Assembly: GCF_002007645.1 (NCBI RefSeq)
Contig: NZ_CP019791.1
Span: forward strand, 682,001-746,000
Reading direction: 5' to 3'
Length of the DNA stretch: 64,000 bases
From: Anaerohalosphaera lusitana
GTDB lineage: Bacteria > Planctomycetota > Phycisphaerae > Sedimentisphaerales > Anaerohalosphaeraceae
The position numbers and the translations under genes were made by a program. This document shows, piece by piece, positions 11,385-37,103 of the stretch. Within the stretch, counting starts at the first letter, position 1; each line of letters begins with the position of its first letter. Below the pieces are notes generated by a model that was given only the letters and a program-made list of their open reading frames with translations, did no database searches and had not been told where the DNA came from.

Positions 11385-11879
11385 ATGTGTCTGTACGCCA
11401 GAGACCTCAGTACCAGTGAAGGCCAGCAAATTCAGCGGATACTCCGCAGCAGCAAAAGCCGAATCAAGATTCGTCGCGGCCAAGTCATTCTTGCCTCTAA
11501 CCAGGGCTATAAAGTTCCTGCTATCGCCGAGCTGGTTCACTATTCGCCGCACCATGTCAGGGTCATCATCAAAGACTTTAACCAACGCGGCCTTAAGGCG
11601 TTGGAGCCCAAGCCCCGGCCGGGAAGACCGCCGGAGTTTACCGAGGACGACAAGGCCATTATTGCCGAGACTGCAAAATGTCCGCCCGACCTTCTGGACT
11701 GCCCTTTTAAGCGGTGGTCGCTGGAAAAACTGCGTGAATATCTTGTCCAGGAAAAGATCGTTCCTACGATCAGCATTGAAACACTCAGGACCATCCTGCG
11801 TGAAAAGAAGGTCAAGCTCCGGCGGACAAAGACGTGGAAAGAGTGCAACGACCCCAATCTCAAGTCTAAAAAAAACTAA
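11385..11879 (+). CDS. IS630-family transposase, N-terminal ORF
   Basis: 164 residues: an N-terminal helix-turn-helix (GYKVPAIAELVHYSPHHVR) followed by a second winged-helix region (RWSLEKLREYL), the usual DNA-binding half of IS630 transposases. The frame ends at a run of eight A (11868-11875) followed by C. A -1 slip there would continue through LIRRYV into the downstream DDE ORF, so the full transposase is probably made by programmed frameshifting. Confidence 0.9.
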   Translation: MCLYARDLSTSEGQQIQRILRSSKSRIKIRRGQVILASNQGYKVPAIAELVHYSPHHVRVIIKDFNQRGLKALEPKPRPGRPPEFTEDDKAIIAETAKCPPDLLDCPFKRWSLEKLREYLVQEKIVPTISIETLRTILREKKVKLRRTKTWKECNDPNLKSKKN

Positions 11880-11890
11880 TTCGCAGATAT

Positions 11891-12424
11891 GTGAACCAGC
11901 CGGCCTCAAACGGGCCGACCATATCATTCGACGAGTTCGGACCGCTGGAGGTTCGTCCTCAGCCGGGCCAAAATTACTGTCATACCGACCATCCCAAGAG
12001 GCTGCCTGCGACCTATACCCGCAAACACGGCGTTCAGCACTGGCTGGCGTTTTACGATGTCCATCAGAAAAAGCTCTGGGGATATGTTCGGCCACGCAAG
12101 CGGCATCAGGAGTTCTTGGAAGTTTTGAAACTGACCAGGAAAAAGTATCCGGCGAACCAGCGGATACACCTGATACTGGACAATTTTTCGCCGCACCGCA
12201 AGGAAAAGGTTCTGCGGTACTGTCGCGAGAACAATATTCATCTGATCTGGACGCCGACCAACGCATCATGGCTAAATCCTATCGAATGTCAGTTTACCCA
12301 TGTTAAGGAATTCGTCATACGCGGAACTAATTATCAAAACCACAATGAGCTTAAAATCGCTCTGAATAGATACGTAGCATATCGCAATAAAAAAAATCAG
12401 CAAAAGTTAAACTTAGATAATTGA
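11891..12424 (+). CDS. IS630-family transposase, catalytic DDE ORF
   Basis: 177 residues with the three acidic residues of a DDE transposase in order: SFDEFG (first Asp), LILDNFSPH (second Asp) and WLNPIECQF (Glu). It lies in the -1 frame relative to the upstream ORF. The GTG at 11891 is only a nominal start; expression most likely depends on slippage at the A8 run at 11868-11875. Confidence 0.9.
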   Translation: MNQPASNGPTISFDEFGPLEVRPQPGQNYCHTDHPKRLPATYTRKHGVQHWLAFYDVHQKKLWGYVRPRKRHQEFLEVLKLTRKKYPANQRIHLILDNFSPHRKEKVLRYCRENNIHLIWTPTNASWLNPIECQFTHVKEFVIRGTNYQNHNELKIALNRYVAYRNKKNQQKLNLDN

Positions 12425-29205: not shown

Positions 29206-29778
29206 TTAATTCTCATGCTTAATCCATTCAGTATTGCATATTGAGCAGAACATTTCTGAGGTTATATTGTTCCATGCAACTGTTCCTGCGTTGAATATTT
29301 CCTCATAATTTTTGTAAATGCGGTTGCTCAAGTAGTGACTCTTCATATAGGCCCAAAGACGTTCTATCGGATTCAATTCCGGACTGTATGCAGGCAGGTG
29401 AAGCAGGCTGATATTCTTCGGCACAACCAACTGTTTAGCGATATGCCAACCAGCCTGATCAAGAACCAGAACCACATGTACATCTTTGCCTGCCTCCTCG
29501 CTTATAAATCTCAGGTGGTGATTCATATAATCAGTGTTAACAGTCGGAGTAATCACAGCCGACGATTTGCCATTGACAGGATTGACAGCTCCAAAAATAT
29601 ATACCCAATCATACTCGGTCTGCTTTACTGCTGTAGGCCTGGATCCTTTTGGAGCCCAAACATTGGTCAGTGTTCCTTGCTGGCCTATTCGCACTTCGTC
29701 CTGGAACCAGATCTCAATTTTCTTTTCGGGGTTTTCTGTTCGGACTTTTTGGACAAAAAGGGGGCTTGCTCCAACCAC
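29206..29778 (-). CDS. IS630-like type B transposase, catalytic ORF (copy 1)
   Basis: 190 residues as a nominal frame; the real catalytic part starts at VQKVRTENPEKKIEIWFQDEV. DDE residues: WFQDEVRIG, LVLDQAGWH and PAYSPELNPIERLW. It overlaps the upstream ORF in the -1 frame; joining near the CCAAAAAG tract (about 29748-29760) gives one transposase. Confidence 0.9.
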   Translation of the reverse strand: MVGASPLFVQKVRTENPEKKIEIWFQDEVRIGQQGTLTNVWAPKGSRPTAVKQTEYDWVYIFGAVNPVNGKSSAVITPTVNTDYMNHHLRFISEEAGKDVHVVLVLDQAGWHIAKQLVVPKNISLLHLPAYSPELNPIERLWAYMKSHYLSNRIYKNYEEIFNAGTVAWNNITSEMFCSICNTEWIKHEN

Positions 29779-30254
29779 TGCTGCATTTTTTCCGGATCGT
29801 TCTTTCGGTGCTTAGGCCTTGGTTTTAGACATGAAAGCCCCAATCTATGCATTAGATCATAGACGCCGAAGAGCGAATATTTTACGCCAAATTCTCTTTC
29901 AAGAATCCGTCTTATGTCTCTGCCGCGTAGCACACATACACCACCGTCTGAATCGGTTGGTCCATCTTGAATTCGCTTGATCAACTCAGGCTCTTTTTTG
30001 CGTGGCAGTTTTGTAGGCCTGCCGCTTTGACGTTTTGGTGCGATAGCCTCAATGCCGCCATCACGGTAGAAATAACACCATCGCTGAACGAAGTTTTTGC
30101 TGCGATCAAGTTTTGTCATGATCGCTTTTGTTTGCCATCCCTCCAATGCCAGGGCTACCACCCGATATCGATCTCGCTGCTTTGCATTGGTTTCAATCCG
30201 AGCTTTTTCTTTTAACTTTTGCAGGTCACCGTACTTGATCTCACTGATGTGCAT
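29685..30254 (-). CDS. IS630-like type B transposase, N-terminal ORF (copy 1)
   Basis: 189 residues. Helix-turn-helix region (WQTKAIMTKLDRSKNFVQRW), a GRPTKLP-type linker and a second DNA-binding region (RDIRRILEREFGVKYS). The last ~20 residues after the presumed frameshift site are not conserved-looking. Confidence 0.9.
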   Translation of the reverse strand: MHISEIKYGDLQKLKEKARIETNAKQRDRYRVVALALEGWQTKAIMTKLDRSKNFVQRWCYFYRDGGIEAIAPKRQSGRPTKLPRKKEPELIKRIQDGPTDSDGGVCVLRGRDIRRILEREFGVKYSLFGVYDLMHRLGLSCLKPRPKHRKNDPEKMQQWLEQAPFLSKKSEQKTPKRKLRSGSRTKCE

Positions 30255-31484: not shown

Positions 31485-32054
31485 ATGCACATCAGTGAGA
31501 TCAAGTACGGTGACCTGCAAAAGTTAAAAGAAAAAGCTCGGATTGAAACCAATGCAAAGCAGCGAGATCGATATCGGGTGGTAGCCCTGGCATTGGAGGG
31601 ATGGCAAACAAAAGCGATCATGACAAAACTTGATCGCAGCAAAAACTTCGTTCAGCGATGGTGTTATTTCTACCGTGATGGCGGCATTGAGGCTATCGCA
31701 CCAAAACGTCAAAGCGGCAGGCCTACAAAACTGCCACGCAAAAAAGAGCCTGAGTTGATCAAGCGAATTCAAGATGGACCAACCGATTCAGACGGTGGTG
31801 TATGTGTGCTACGCGGCAGAGACATAAGACGGATTCTTGAAAGAGAATTTGGCGTAAAATATTCGCTCTTCGGCGTCTATGATCTAATGCATAGATTGGG
31901 GCTTTCATGTCTAAAACCAAGGCCTAAGCACCGAAAGAACGATCCGGAAAAAATGCAGCAGTGGTTGGAGCAAGCCCCCTTTTTGTCCAAAAAGTCCGAA
32001 CAGAAAACCCCGAAAAGAAAATTGAGATCTGGTTCCAGGACGAAGTGCGAATAG
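31485..32054 (+). CDS. IS630-like type B transposase, N-terminal ORF (copy 2)
   Basis: 189 residues, identical to 29685-30254. Helix-turn-helix DNA-binding half of the transposase. Confidence 0.9.
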   Translation: MHISEIKYGDLQKLKEKARIETNAKQRDRYRVVALALEGWQTKAIMTKLDRSKNFVQRWCYFYRDGGIEAIAPKRQSGRPTKLPRKKEPELIKRIQDGPTDSDGGVCVLRGRDIRRILEREFGVKYSLFGVYDLMHRLGLSCLKPRPKHRKNDPEKMQQWLEQAPFLSKKSEQKTPKRKLRSGSRTKCE

Positions 32055-32533
32055 GCCAGCAAGGAACACTGACCAATGTTTGGGCTCCAAAAGGATCCAG
32101 GCCTACAGCAGTAAAGCAGACCGAGTATGATTGGGTATATATTTTTGGAGCTGTCAATCCTGTCAATGGCAAATCGTCGGCTGTGATTACTCCGACTGTT
32201 AACACTGATTATATGAATCACCACCTGAGATTTATAAGCGAGGAGGCAGGCAAAGATGTACATGTGGTTCTGGTTCTTGATCAGGCTGGTTGGCATATCG
32301 CTAAACAGTTGGTTGTGCCGAAGAATATCAGCCTGCTTCACCTGCCTGCATACAGTCCGGAATTGAATCCGATAGAACGTCTTTGGGCCTATATGAAGAG
32401 TCACTACTTGAGCAACCGCATTTACAAAAATTATGAGGAAATATTCAACGCAGGAACAGTTGCATGGAACAATATAACCTCAGAAATGTTCTGCTCAATA
32501 TGCAATACTGAATGGATTAAGCATGAGAATTAA
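31961..32533 (+). CDS. IS630-like type B transposase, catalytic ORF (copy 2)
   Basis: 190 residues, identical to 29206-29778. Contains the DDE residues (WFQDEV, LDQAGWH, NPIERLW). Overlaps the first ORF in the -1 frame; probably produced by frameshifting near 31985-31995. Confidence 0.9.
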   Translation: MVGASPLFVQKVRTENPEKKIEIWFQDEVRIGQQGTLTNVWAPKGSRPTAVKQTEYDWVYIFGAVNPVNGKSSAVITPTVNTDYMNHHLRFISEEAGKDVHVVLVLDQAGWHIAKQLVVPKNISLLHLPAYSPELNPIERLWAYMKSHYLSNRIYKNYEEIFNAGTVAWNNITSEMFCSICNTEWIKHEN

Positions 32534-32749: not shown

Positions 32750-32908
32750 TTCGCTCAATGATACCAGGGAACCAGTATACTCCAACCAACTGCCGCACTC
32801 ATAGCCGAATGATTCCCCAGGCGGATCCCATGCCCGTAATATTCACCGCCCCCAAAAAGGAAAAACACCCACAAAAATCTCCCACTTGACAGGTAGGAAA
32901 CAGCCTGT

Positions 32909-33050
32909 CACTTTTACCCCGTTTTCACCTATTTTTAACATACTTTCACCCCCAAAACACTCACTTTTGCCCCACTTTTACTCCCTCAAAAATTGGCCAA
33001 ATCAGCCCATTTTGGCCAAAGTCCTATTTACCAGGTGTCCATCTGGTATA
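32909..33050. other. Iteron-like boxes and palindromes; candidate origin element
   Basis: Five related boxes: CACTTTTACCCC (32909-32920), TTTTCACC (32922-32929), ACTTTCACCCCC (32942-32953), CACTTTTGCCCC (32962-32973) and CACTTTTACTCC (32973-32984). Two TTGGCCAA palindromes 11 bases apart and an inverted repeat follow. The array sits next to the point where strand G/C asymmetry changes sign. A role in replication or partition is inference only. Confidence 0.35.
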
Positions 33051-33209
33051 TTTACCCACACTTGCACTGGGGCCAATTCCCGTTCCTCCCTCGGCATTAC
33101 ACCGCAGACCCTCCCCGCAAGGCCTGTTCTCCTGGGCAATTCTCCAGCCGAGGTTTGGGTAATCCGCCCGACACCTCATTGCACTGCAGAAACAGGACAG
33201 GCCATAGTG

Positions 33210-33941
33210 TCAATTCTGGTTGTCCTCCGCCCGGATGATCCCGTCACTGGTCAGATCCTCCCCGACTTTCTGCCCCGGCTGAACAGTCAGAAACTTATCC
33301 TTATCCCAATCGCCGTCCACTAACTTCTGCACCAGCAAGGACTTACCGATCAGCTCATCATACTTCCACCCCAGAAACTCCGCCGCCTCTTTAGTGTAAT
33401 CCTTATAAGACTGCTCCCCGTCCGTTAGCTCCCAGCCTACATACGTCGCCCACTCGTACTCCTTCATCCAGTTCTGCTCCATCTCCATCAAATACGCCGC
33501 ATTGTCCTCGCCGTACTTGTCTGTATATTCCTGTAAGGTCCTGTCATATCGAGACTTAGAGGGCTGGCAGTTCGATTCCACCCACCCCGGACTGTACCAG
33601 TAAATACCCTTTCGGCCGTCAAAATACTCCTGATACCGCTCCTTAGATCCCAGCAGCAGCGTAATACAGTCATGCGCTCGCGGCACCACCAGCGGAATTT
33701 CACAACTCAACCCGAGTACTCCATTACTGCAAAGTCCGTAGCCTAAAAGACTTGCGTCATATTTGCGACCCTGAACATCCTCGGTTTTCACAAGCTCTTT
33801 CCCCAGTTCCTCCCTCAGTTTGTCCGGCGTATCATGCAGTCCCTGCGGCATCAAAACCACATCCACCTGATTATGCGACCGAGCGGCGCACCAATAAGCT
33901 TCCCGCTGTAACACCTTGCAAACAATGAACTTAAGACGCAT
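33210..33941 (-). CDS. DUF1638 domain protein
   Basis: 243 residues. The DUF1638 pattern is clear: FIVCKVLQREAYWCA at the start, YGLCSNGVLGL (with a conserved Cys), VVPRAHDCITLLLGS and a YWYSPGW motif (about 110-120). The family is widespread in anaerobes and methanogens next to corrinoid/methyltransferase genes, but no such genes are present here and its function is unknown. Cytoplasmic, no signal. It is transcribed away from rsmE. Confidence 0.85.
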   Translation of the reverse strand: MRLKFIVCKVLQREAYWCAARSHNQVDVVLMPQGLHDTPDKLREELGKELVKTEDVQGRKYDASLLGYGLCSNGVLGLSCEIPLVVPRAHDCITLLLGSKERYQEYFDGRKGIYWYSPGWVESNCQPSKSRYDRTLQEYTDKYGEDNAAYLMEMEQNWMKEYEWATYVGWELTDGEQSYKDYTKEAAEFLGWKYDELIGKSLLVQKLVDGDWDKDKFLTVQPGQKVGEDLTSDGIIRAEDNQN

Positions 33942-34143
33942 TAGATTCCCTCAGTTAACCTGTCATACACCTGTGAAATCAACGATTTCGTCGGCTGACC
34001 ACTTCTGTTTAATGCGTTTTTAGCAGGTTGAACCGTGAAAGTCAATTTGCCTTTGCATCCGGTCCGAAACCATATACAATGTCTGGTACAAACATGTGCT
34101 TACCATTGCATGAACCGTTTCGTTTCTAAGTTACTGTATATAA

Positions 34144-34998
34144 ATGGCTTATGAGGTGTTGGTTTTGAAGATAAACCGTTTTTACTGCGAAAATATCACC
34201 CCCGATCAGGTGGTTCTGGCCGGCAGCGAGGCCCATCACGCCATCCACGTTATGCGCGTAAAACCTGCAGATAAAGTTGAATTATTCGACGGCAAGGGCA
34301 GTTTTGCTGTCGGCACCGTGGTCGATGTAGGACGAAAAACCGTGTCCCTGGAGGTTGGTGAAATAGAGCATGCGGACCTCAGTGGACGCGCGCAAGTCGT
34401 TATGGCAGCTAGTTTTGCGAAGGGCCAGCGCAACGATTGGATGGTCTCAAAATGCACCGAACTGGGCGTCGACCATATCGCGGGAGTGGTTTTCGACCGC
34501 ACCGTCAAACAGCCCAAAGGCAAGTCCGCGGATAAGCGAAATCACAACCTGGCAGTCACCGCAGCCAAACAGTGCAAACGTCTGACCCTGCCTAAGTTCA
34601 GCATGCACAATGGCTTAGAAGATGCAGTGGCTGAACTCAAAAACGAATATCCTGATGCTGTCCTCGTCTTCGGCGGCTGGAGCGAATCGGCCGTCCCGGT
34701 TTGTAAAGTGGTTAATGATATTTATAACCCCGGCGGCAATGATCTATGCAAAGAAGGTTTGCCTCAGGATTCTAAGCCATTTCCCAGTAAGGACTTACAT
34801 TCGCAAGGTAACAAAAAGAAATGCCGTGATGTTATCGCGATCATCGGCCCGGAGGGCGGTTTTTCTGACGAGGAAGTCGAGTTTTTAAAGTCTGCAGGCG
34901 CGGTTGAGGTTCAGTTGACCAAAACCATTTTGCGAATCGAAACCGCCGCGGTCGCCTTCGCATCGATTTTCTGCACCGCAAGGGATGTTTGTCTGTAA
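34144..34998 (+). CDS. rsmE: 16S rRNA m3U1498 methyltransferase
   Basis: SPOUT-class methyltransferase that methylates N3 of U1498 in 16S rRNA. It has the N-terminal PUA-like domain (RFYCENI...HHAIHVMRVKPADKVELFDGKG), FAKGQRNDWMVSKCTELGV, and the SAM-knot motifs IIGPEGGFSDEE and LRIETAAVAF. An insert of about 35 polar residues (around 195-230) precedes the IGPEGG motif and looks like a lineage-specific loop. The frame opens at ATG 34144, but TTG 34165 has GAGGTG upstream and begins K-I-N-R-F-Y, closer to the family start; it is the likelier start. Confidence 0.93.
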   Translation: MAYEVLVLKINRFYCENITPDQVVLAGSEAHHAIHVMRVKPADKVELFDGKGSFAVGTVVDVGRKTVSLEVGEIEHADLSGRAQVVMAASFAKGQRNDWMVSKCTELGVDHIAGVVFDRTVKQPKGKSADKRNHNLAVTAAKQCKRLTLPKFSMHNGLEDAVAELKNEYPDAVLVFGGWSESAVPVCKVVNDIYNPGGNDLCKEGLPQDSKPFPSKDLHSQGNKKKCRDVIAIIGPEGGFSDEEVEFLKSAGAVEVQLTKTILRIETAAVAFASIFCTARDVCL

Positions 34999-35114
34999 CG
35001 GTTTGGCCGATTCTGCGTCTATCCTTACGGATCATGTTAAGATGGTGTTTAAATTTTTAAACATTTAAATAATATATAAAATGCTGCAGGGTGTTTATAT
35101 TTGGAGAAATGATA

Positions 35115-35312
35115 ATGCTGTGGATGTATAAGACGGCTAAGGTGAAGGCGACGGGTGGGTTTCTGGGCGGTAAGTTTAATGCGGGTAAGTTGGAGGTGAA
35201 GTTGAACGAGCTTGGCAAGGACGGCTGGGAGCTTTCGACATCTTTCACTACCAACAAAAACTATGGTGAGACCCGCGATGCGGTGTTAGTTTTCAAACGG
35301 TCGGTGGGGTGA
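35115..35312 (+). CDS. DUF4177-like small protein
   Basis: 65 residues from the ATG at 35115 (TTGGAG upstream). It has the shape of DUF4177: an N-terminal M-Y-K strand, then L-N-E-L-G-K-D-G-W-E-L and a final VLVFKR strand. Insertions such as TGGFLGGKFNAG are typical of the longer members. Function unknown. It is G-rich on the + strand, unlike genes left of 33 kb. Confidence 0.7.
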   Translation: MLWMYKTAKVKATGGFLGGKFNAGKLEVKLNELGKDGWELSTSFTTNKNYGETRDAVLVFKRSVG

Positions 35313-35380
35313 GTGAGTCTTGTACCGTATACATATTATATCATGGTAGATCGTGAGAAAAAATTGTTGGAGGAAATATA

Positions 35381-36055
35381 ATGGAGCGCGACCGAAAGGC
35401 TGCAGAGGAGAGGTTTAATGAAGGTGTAGAATTTTGCAATAAAGGGCGATACGAAGAGTGTTTAAACGCTTTTGAGGAAGCGATACGCCTCGAACCAACT
35501 AATAGCGTTTTATAGAACGGCAAGGGCAATTCACTCGAAAGTCTTGGCAACTATACCCAGGCGTTGAAAGCATATGAGGAAGCGATACGCCTCGACCCGA
35601 CTTTTAGCTTCGCTTGGGATAATATGGGCGATGCACTTTATAAGCATTGCAGATATAACCAAGCATTGGAAGCATATGAGGAAGCGATACGTTTCAATCC
35701 AACTTTCAGCTGTCCGTGGAGCGGCAAAGGCAATGTACTAAATTCTCTCAGCAGATATGATGAGGCATTGGAGGCCTATGATGAAGCAATACGCCTTGAT
35801 CCAACTAATAGCGATCCATGGAACGGTAAGGGGTATGCCTTTGATTCTCTTGGCAGATCTGACCAGGCGTTTGACGCTTTTGATGAAGCGATACGCCGTG
35901 ATCCAACTAATAGCAGCCCGTGGACCGGTAAGGGCAATTTATTTGATAAGCTCGGCAGATATGCCGAAGCATTGGAAGCGTATCAGAAAGCGATACGAAT
36001 TGAGCCAACTTGTGTAGCCCCGTGGAACGGCAAGGGAAATGCACTTGTTAACCTA
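35381..36055 (+). pseudogene. Tetratricopeptide-repeat gene, nonsense codon and IS-truncated
   Basis: ATG 35381 with GGAGG upstream begins MERDRKAAEERFNEG and runs into TPR repeats of 34 residues (YxxALEAYEEAIRLDPT, NxWxGKGNAL). At 35513-35515 a TAG replaces the Trp codon found at the same repeat position elsewhere (PWNGKGN). The frame then continues through five more repeats until the IS630 copy at 36056. Beyond the IS no TPR sequence is found, so the 3' end was deleted. TPR arrays mediate protein contacts; this gene is dead unless the TAG is read through. Confidence 0.85.
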
Positions 36056-36063
36056 GTGCCGTT

Positions 36064-36597
36064 TCAATTATCTAAGTTTCGCTTTTGCTGATTTTTTTTA
36101 TTGCGATATGCTACGTATCTATTCAGAGCGGTTTTAAGCTCATTATGATTTTGATAATTAGTTCCGCGTATGACGAATTCCTTAACATGGGTAAACTGAC
36201 ATTCGATAGGATTTAGCCATGATGCGTTGGTCGGCGTCCAGATCAGATGAATATTGTTCTCGCGACAGTACCGCAGAACCTTGTCCTTGCGGTGCGGCGA
36301 GAAATTGTCCAGTATCAGATGGATCCGCTGGTTTGCCGGATACTTTTTCCTGGTCAGTTTCAAAACTTCCAAGAACTCCTGATGCCGCTTGCGTGGCCGA
36401 ACATATCCCCAGAGCTTTTTCTGATGGACATCGTAAAACGCCAGCCAGTGCTGAACGCCGTGTTTGCGGGTATAGGTCGCAGGCAGCCTCTTGGGATGGT
36501 CGGTATGACAGTAATTCCGGCCTGGCTGAGGACGAATCTCCAGCGGTCCGAACTCGTCGAATGATATGGTCGGCCCGTTTGAGGCCGGCTGGTTCAC
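36064..36597 (-). CDS. IS630-family transposase, catalytic DDE ORF (copy 2)
   Basis: 177 residues, matching 11891-12424 except for a few substitutions (for example HRKDKVLR for HRKEKVLR). DDE residues intact. Depends on -1 slippage at the A8 tract (complement of 36613-36620). Confidence 0.9.
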   Translation of the reverse strand: MNQPASNGPTISFDEFGPLEIRPQPGRNYCHTDHPKRLPATYTRKHGVQHWLAFYDVHQKKLWGYVRPRKRHQEFLEVLKLTRKKYPANQRIHLILDNFSPHRKDKVLRYCRENNIHLIWTPTNASWLNPIECQFTHVKEFVIRGTNYQNHNELKTALNRYVAYRNKKNQQKRNLDN

Positions 36598-36608
36598 ATA
36601 TCTGCGAA

Positions 36609-37103
36609 TTAGTTTTTTTTAGACTTGAGATTGGGGTCGTTGCACTCTTTCCACGTCTTTGTCCGCCGGAGCTTGACCTTCTTTTCACGCAGGATGGTCC
36701 TGAGTGTTTCAATGCTGATCGTAGGAACGATCTTTTCCTGGACAAGATATTCACGCAGTTTTTCCAGCGACCACCGCTTAAAAGGGCAGTCCAGAAGGTC
36801 GGGCGGACATTTTGCAGTCTCGGCAATAATGGCCTTGTCGTCCTCGGTAAACTCCGGCGGTCTTCCCGGCCGGGGCTTGGGCTCCAACGCCTTAAGGCCG
36901 CGTTGGTTAAAGTCTTTGATGATGACCCTGACATGGTGCGGCGAATAGTGAACCAGCTCGGCGATAGCAGGAACTTTATAGCCCTGGTTAGAGGCAAGAA
37001 TGACTTGGCCGCGACGAATCTTGATTCGGCTTTTGCTGCTGCGGAGTATCCGCTGAATTTGCTGGCCTTCACTGGTACTGAGGTCTCTGGCGTACAGACA
37101 CAT
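36609..37103 (-). CDS. IS630-family transposase, N-terminal ORF (copy 2)
   Basis: 164 residues, identical to the protein of 11385-11879. Ends at the A8 slippery run. Confidence 0.9.
   Translation of the reverse strand: MCLYARDLSTSEGQQIQRILRSSKSRIKIRRGQVILASNQGYKVPAIAELVHYSPHHVRVIIKDFNQRGLKALEPKPRPGRPPEFTEDDKAIIAETAKCPPDLLDCPFKRWSLEKLREYLVQEKIVPTISIETLRTILREKKVKLRRTKTWKECNDPNLKSKKN

What the first reader, a model, noticed from the sequence alone, without database searches (positions are those of the whole stretch)
32880..35115. Sign change in strand G/C bias with an iteron-like array: candidate replication origin
Left of about 33 kb the + strand is C-rich whichever strand is coding (nrdJ on minus and uvrC on plus both show it). 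Right of about 35 kb the + strand is G-rich (ABC operon, helicase, argS, and the minus-strand P460 gene). Change from C-rich to G-rich on one strand is the usual mark of an origin. At 32909-32984 there are five CACTTTTACCCC-like boxes, followed by two TTGGCCAA palindromes and a TACCAG/CTGGTA inverted repeat, in a gene-free gap. No dnaA gene is nearby and only isolated DnaA-box matches were seen, so this could be an atypical origin or a partition site. The skew reading is by eye.
Basis: partly seen in the sequence, partly recalled or inferred. Interest (0 to 1): 0.75.

Follow-up and report, generated by a model that had tools for sequence, protein, structure and literature searches.

The report
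Many iteron-marked origins on one chromosome
The repeat array in this window is one of at least twenty similar arrays scattered round a single bacterial chromosome, and nearly every one sits where the DNA strand bias flips as it does at a replication origin, which suggests that this planctomycete copies its chromosome from many start points where bacteria are expected to have one.

Summary
The + strand flips from C-rich to G-rich near 34-35 kb, at third codon positions of genes on both strands, and a TTTYRCCC iteron array lies at 32,912-32,983. It is not "the" origin. The window is part of a closed 4.25-Mb Sedimentisphaerales chromosome whose interpolated cumulative minimum is near 421 kb. The array belongs to a 165-bp element with 11 full copies plus weaker iteron-only copies, in unrelated gene contexts. 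All 22 sites found by sequence alone (E<0.01) show a C-to-G jump (mean +0.49; 20/22 above 0.25; random sites 12%), 0.7-3.5 kb downstream in the element's own orientation in nearly all. In the 756 kb read almost without gaps, 6 of 7 clear jumps carry an array. Between jumps the skew declines and crosses zero near most midpoints, like the human N-domains produced by many bidirectional origins. Relatives sampled lack the pattern. Best reading: a bacterial chromosome replicated from about 20 or more dispersed iteron origins. Inversions, transcription and a single oriC fit poorly. Origin activity is inferred; no reads or experiments were available. The initiator is unknown; an order-wide second DnaA with altered DNA-contact residues is a candidate.

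The parts
32878..33041 (+). Dispersed origin-associated element (one of 11 full copies in this chromosome)
   Evidence: 100% self match; other copies 72-78% by blastn; model R1 123 bits. Core 93-99% identical between closest copies, flanks less.
32879..32900 (+). Conserved left end CTCCCACTTGACAGGTAGGAAA; with following bases forms a TGACAGG...CCTGTCA hairpin
   Evidence: 11 matches with up to 3 mismatches in the genome, 7 of them perfect, control 0; 8-bp stem in the consensus, no covariation.
32912..32983 (+). Iteron array, TTTYRCCC boxes at about 11-bp period
   Evidence: Unit number differs between copies by 11-bp indels.
32993..33019 (.). Two TTGGCCAA palindromes (32,993-33,000; 33,012-33,019), present only in this copy
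   Evidence: Sequence; alignment.
33022..33041 (+). Conserved right end TCCTATTTACCAGGTGTCCA; imperfect inverted match to the left end (12/18, read by eye)
   Evidence: 11 matches with up to 3 mismatches, control 0. Same end seen in one relative (L428).
34116..34977 (.). Strand-bias switch (C-rich to G-rich), about 2.1 kb downstream of the element: inferred start zone of leading strands
33210..33941 (-). DUF1638 gene between element and switch
   Evidence: PF07796, 6e-37.
34144..34998 (+). rsmE (16S rRNA methyltransferase) gene at the switch
   Evidence: PF04452, PF20260.

Best explanation
The element marks one of roughly 20 or more replication origins on a single bacterial chromosome. SHOWN: (i) a family of 165-bp elements with an 11-bp iteron array (TTTYRCCC) is dispersed round the chromosome in unrelated gene contexts; (ii) nearly every member sits 0.7-3.5 kb upstream (in its own orientation) of a local C-to-G strand-bias switch seen at neutral sites regardless of gene strand; (iii) between neighbouring switches the skew falls and changes sign near the midpoint in most intervals. 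INFERRED: an initiator protein binds the iterons and helicase is loaded nearby; bidirectional forks leave with leading strands starting on average 1-3 kb downstream; forks from neighbouring origins meet at variable places about half way, giving the gradual N-shaped profile. SPECULATIVE: the initiator is the order-wide second DnaA (DnaA1), whose DNA-contact residues are changed and whose box could be TTTTRCCC(A) instead of TTWTNCACA.
For: All 11 full copies, both orientations, sit at a C-to-G switch whose local minimum lies 1.7-3.5 kb downstream of the element. Prospective test: 11 further, weaker hits were taken by model score alone, then their skew measured; 9 of 11 show a jump of 0.25 or more. 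All 22: mean jump +0.49, 20/22 >0.25, against null mean 0.009, 11.7% >0.25. Two lower-ranked hits (154,211; 3,209,412) also jump by >0.5. Blind sampling found 10 C-to-G flips before the link was known; 9 coincide with arrays. In the 756 kb with only 30 kb missing, 6 of 7 clear jumps carry an array. Between jumps linear fits give R2 0.61-0.88 from about +0.4 to -0.6, with zero crossings 91/183/262/390/500/638 kb against midpoints 94/190/296/394/496/643; this is the N-domain shape predicted for many bidirectional origins (PMC3320577). Third-position skew flips from -0.37/-0.30 to +0.29/+0.29 on plus/minus genes alike, intergenic -0.27 to +0.17, AT skew +0.05 to -0.06. Jump size correlates with element score (rho 0.53, p 0.01). 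Sampled stretches of relatives show constant or weak skew. IS630 copies away from arrays show no positive jump (0/10).
Against: No replication data: origin activity is inferred from composition only, and skew records past as well as present use. The switch is offset 1-3 kb from the array and no shared motif was found there. One sharp switch (569.9 kb) has no array, and low-scoring hits at 88.6 kb and 1,756 kb have little or no switch. For two weak hits (3,575 kb, 4,032 kb) the local minimum itself is not at the usual offset although the jump is there. One interval (225-367 kb) crosses zero well short of its midpoint and fits a step better than a line. No iteron initiator of the Rep_3 type is in the genome. 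The 3-box pattern is not enriched in relatives. Only 42% of the chromosome was read. Gene calls came from a home-made dicodon caller. Coding sequence is only weakly co-oriented with the inferred forks (56%).
Confidence: 0.75

Rival explanations
1. The chromosome has many origins, but they are set by something else; the element is a MITE-like or regulatory/partition repeat that accumulates beside them.
For: Ends resemble terminal inverted repeats; one switch (569.9 kb) lacks an array; the switch is 1-3 kb from the element. Origin flanks are rich in other repeats.
Against: Fixed orientation and side relative to the switch, constrained core against diverged flanks, iteron-only arrays without the ends also mark switches, jump scales with score. 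No other shared motif at the switch.
Confidence: 0.12
2. A single-origin chromosome scrambled by inversions through repeats, so that skew blocks alternate.
For: Many sign changes; IS630 copies in inverted pairs in the window.
Against: Inversions give as many abrupt maxima as minima; all 11 full copies are minima (by chance 1 in 2,048), only 2 abrupt maxima against 8 minima over the same threshold in 756 kb, the decline between jumps is gradual in most intervals and crosses zero near midpoints in most (linear BIC -516 against step -508).
Confidence: 0.05
3. The switches come from transcription or gene orientation, not replication.
For: Coding strand has an intrinsic G excess at first codon positions.
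Against: Third positions of genes on both strands and intergenic DNA flip together.
Confidence: 0.03
4. This locus is the ordinary single oriC.
For: Clear local minimum with an array.
Against: Interpolated global minimum about 421 kb; at least 20 equal sites; no dnaA or DnaA-box cluster in the window.
Confidence: 0.02

Closest known systems
Multi-origin chromosomes of archaea (Sulfolobus, Haloferax) and eukaryotes; human skew N-domains (PMC3320577)
   Same: Several bidirectional origins per chromosome; upward skew jumps at origins, decline and sign change towards midpoints.
   Different: Bacterium with DnaA, no Orc1/Cdc6 expected; about 20 or more origins on 4.25 Mb marked by one repeated iteron element.
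Synechocystis / Nostoc replication from multiple origins without DnaA (PMC7198777)
   Same: Bacterial chromosomes reported to replicate from several places.
   Different: There skew is irregular; the passages read name no shared origin element. Here sites are discrete, sequence-marked and show sharp switches, and two DnaA proteins are kept.
Putative double oriC chromosomes (Gao 2015, PMC4403523)
   Same: Prediction of more than one origin from composition.
   Different: Two sites next to replication genes with canonical DnaA boxes, against about 20 sites with a non-canonical box.
Iteron plasmid and secondary-chromosome origins (RK2, R6K, V. cholerae ori2)
   Same: Tandem direct repeats at about one helical turn, at an origin.
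   Different: Chromosomal, dispersed in many copies, no Rep_3 initiator found.
MITEs / REP-like dispersed repeats
   Same: Short, intergenic, non-coding, imperfect inverted ends, multicopy.
   Different: Tied to skew minima; no autonomous partner element found (IS21 istB absent).

Membership tests
Bacterial oriC (DnaA-box origin) | Cluster of canonical DnaA boxes (TTWTNCACA) | tested here: not met
   Only isolated boxes in the window; best cluster in the first 25% sample is upstream of dnaA1 at contig 4,250,159-4,250,759.
Bacterial oriC (DnaA-box origin) | Single site at the chromosome's cumulative skew minimum | tested here: not met
   Many minima; interpolated global minimum about 421 kb.
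Bacterial oriC (DnaA-box origin) | Supports initiation in vivo | not testable with these tools
   Needs coverage or nascent-strand data.
Multi-origin chromosome | Several origin-type skew switches on one replicon, independent of gene orientation | tested here: met
Multi-origin chromosome | Fork-direction change between origins near midpoints | tested here: met
   Zero crossings near midpoints in 5 of 6 intervals; 225-367 kb is off by 34 kb.
Multi-origin chromosome | Experimental initiation at each site | not testable with these tools
   No reads or cultures.
Iteron (Rep_3) replicon | Tandem iterons at helical period | tested here: met
   11-bp period arrays.
Iteron (Rep_3) replicon | Rep_3-type initiator gene | tested here: not met
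   PF01051: none in the own genome; control genomes ring.
IS21-type transposon end / MITE | Matching transposase in the genome | tested here: not met
   PF01695 hits are only the two DnaA proteins; other transposase types not tested.
IS21-type transposon end / MITE | Target-site duplication | tested here: inconclusive
   No consistent duplication seen at the ends.
parS-like partition site | Palindromic ParB-binding sequence shared by copies | tested here: not met
   TTGGCCAA is present only in the window copy; no shared palindrome beyond the 7-8-bp hairpin.

The most novel reading that the evidence does not exclude
A free-living bacterium replicates its chromosome from about 20 or more dispersed, sequence-defined origins, each an iteron array recognised by an anciently duplicated DnaA with changed DNA-contact residues (R399K, L422Y/F, D433N, T435A), the origins having spread round the chromosome as a small repeated element.
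Probability: 0.3. Interest if true: 0.97.

Novelty: categorically new. Interest (0 to 1): 0.92.

Why it matters
One oriC per chromosome is held to be the rule in bacteria (PMC10331603 states it for all bacteria; PMC4403523 says there is no evidence of two functional origins on one chromosome). A chromosome with about 20 discrete, sequence-marked origins would break that rule and give a system in which once-per-cycle control, fork convergence and origin spread can be tested in a bacterium. Even if the arrays are not the initiating sequence, the link between a dispersed repeat and local strand-bias minima has no explanation that I know of. The cyanobacterial cases lack defined sites in what I read; archaeal and eukaryotic multi-origin replication is the nearest mode, and a reader who counts it as the same kind would call this a new variant.

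Tried and rejected
Gene-orientation skew: rejected, both gene strands flip. Inversion scrambling: disfavoured. IS21 ends: no istB in the genome. Rep_3 initiator: absent. Known RNA family: no Rfam hit in the window. Repeat as a general dispersed repeat: exact left-end pattern absent from the collection of 84,980 species genomes (own genome may be left out there), absent by blastn from 39 relatives, one weak element with the same ends in relative G004. Shared motif at the +2 kb switch: none convincing. Array at the 569.9-kb switch: none found, also with the unfiltered model. Decoy repeats: the CTTCGTGG repeat is no independent control, because all its 7 sites lie near arrays; IS630 copies served instead, with a loose pattern. 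TTGGCCAA and TACCAG/CTGGTA as defining parts: rejected, not conserved. A paper confirming the DnaA base-contact residues was not found.

Full report
WHAT WAS CHECKED. The + strand of the window changes from C-rich (-0.22) to G-rich (+0.26); the cumulative minimum is at 34,116 (raw) or 34,977 (third codon positions plus intergenic). Genes on both strands agree: third-position skew -0.27/-0.43 left, +0.36/+0.19 right. The boxes at 32,912-32,983 are an 11-bp-period array of TTTYRCCC. The interval is not gene-free: DUF1638 and rsmE lie between array and switch.

WHERE IT IS. The window is positions 682,001-746,000 of a single 4,250,973-bp contig. A scan with dnaA1 relatives returned named Sedimentisphaerales / Phycisphaerae genomes, including Anaerohalosphaeraceae; the strain itself was not identified. 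Two dnaA paralogues lie at 376 and 470,669. The dnaA1 locus has weak DnaA boxes upstream, but skew there runs from plus to minus, not as at an origin.

NOT ONE BUT MANY. A blastn of the array against the own genome gave 11 full copies and a fragment. Both ends are conserved, the interior differs by whole 11-bp units, and the ends are imperfect inverted repeats. Copies with cores 93-99% identical have alignable flanks of mostly 65-90%, so the core is constrained or homogenised.

THE KEY RESULT. After sampling about a quarter of the contig, skew signs were seen to flip many times, not following gene strand. Fetching 20 kb round each copy showed that all 11 sit at a C-to-G switch, with the minimum 1.7-3.5 kb downstream in the element's own orientation. 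A model of the 11 copies was then run on the genome; the 11 next hits, chosen by score alone, are mostly iterons without the ends. Nine of these 11 also show a jump of 0.25 or more. For all 22 the mean jump is +0.49 and 20 exceed 0.25, against 11.7% of random positions (the null includes the arrays' own neighbourhoods). Of ten flips seen blind, nine hold an array. Pooled over sites, third-position skew flips from -0.37 to +0.29 on plus genes and from -0.30 to +0.29 on minus genes; intergenic DNA and AT skew flip too.

N-SHAPED DOMAINS. For 0-756 kb, with only 30 kb missing, a threshold scan listed 8 minima; one (540.8 kb) is weak, leaving 7 clear jumps, at 34, 155, 225, 367, 422, 570 and 717 kb. 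All but 570 carry an array; only two abrupt drops pass the same threshold. Between jumps the skew declines (R2 0.61-0.88) and crosses zero at 91, 183, 262, 390, 500 and 638 kb, midpoints being 94, 190, 296, 394, 496 and 643; the 225-367 kb interval is the exception. Linear and step fits are close (BIC -516 and -508). Skew proportional to mean fork direction gives this shape when many bidirectional origins fire and forks meet at variable places (PMC3320577). Inversions would not place the crossings near midpoints.

RELATIVES. No relative among the family members searched holds the element except one weak copy with the same ends in G004. The stretches sampled from three relatives show constant or weak skew: 120 kb of G001 mostly at about +0.37, 80 kb of G016 mostly plus, ten 20-kb samples of G026 at or below 0.14. 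The feature therefore looks confined to this genus-level lineage, though most of each relative was not read.

MECHANISM. The simplest reading is initiation at or near each array with bidirectional forks. The array lies within the leftward-replicated side, 0.7-3.5 kb from the switch, and no motif is shared at the switch; why is open. The initiator is unknown. Rep_3 is absent. The two DnaA types are conserved across the order: DnaA2 keeps nearly all canonical residues, DnaA1 has K399, Y/F422, N433 and A435 in nearly all. That these positions contact bases in E. coli DnaA is from my own knowledge of the 1J1V structure and was not confirmed in a paper. Since the box TTTTACCCA differs from TTWTNCACA by one base, DnaA1 is a candidate, no more.

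LIMITS. No reads, no experiments; 42% of the chromosome read; home-made gene calls; the 11 full copies were found before the skew link was formulated, so the prospective part of the test is the 11 weaker hits and the 0-756 kb stretch. Because skew builds up slowly, it cannot tell present from past use.

Noticed in passing
window 29,206-30,254 (-) and 31,485-32,533 (+); 11,385-12,424 (+) and 36,064-37,103 (-): Two kinds of IS630-like transposase genes, each as an inverted pair in the window; an identical copy of the first kind lies beside another array (L010).
   Followed up: partly
L002 1-1404 and L001 1195-2511 (contig 376 and 470,669): Two DnaA paralogues, conserved across the order, the first with altered DNA-recognition residues (R399K, L422Y/F, D433N, T435A).
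   Followed up: yes
L252 around 14,930 (contig 569,931): The sharpest skew switch in 0-756 kb (-0.32 to +0.29 within 1 kb) has no iteron array.
   Followed up: partly
L428, contig G004:C117 1,183-1,377: One element with the same two ends but a decayed iteron interior in another genus of the family.
   Followed up: partly
L005 1-500; L006 2-1159: What looks like a CRISPR array (contig 3,449.6 kb) and a Cas9-like reading frame beside the 890-kb array.
   Followed up: no
upstream 20-200 bp of most full copies, e.g. L169, L175: A CTTCGTGCTCCTTCGTGCCCTTCGTGGTGAAAAC repeat that in the sequence read occurs only near arrays (7 sites, none far away).
   Followed up: partly
window 35,380-36,091: A TPR-like reading frame near the switch appears broken by an in-frame stop.
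   Followed up: no
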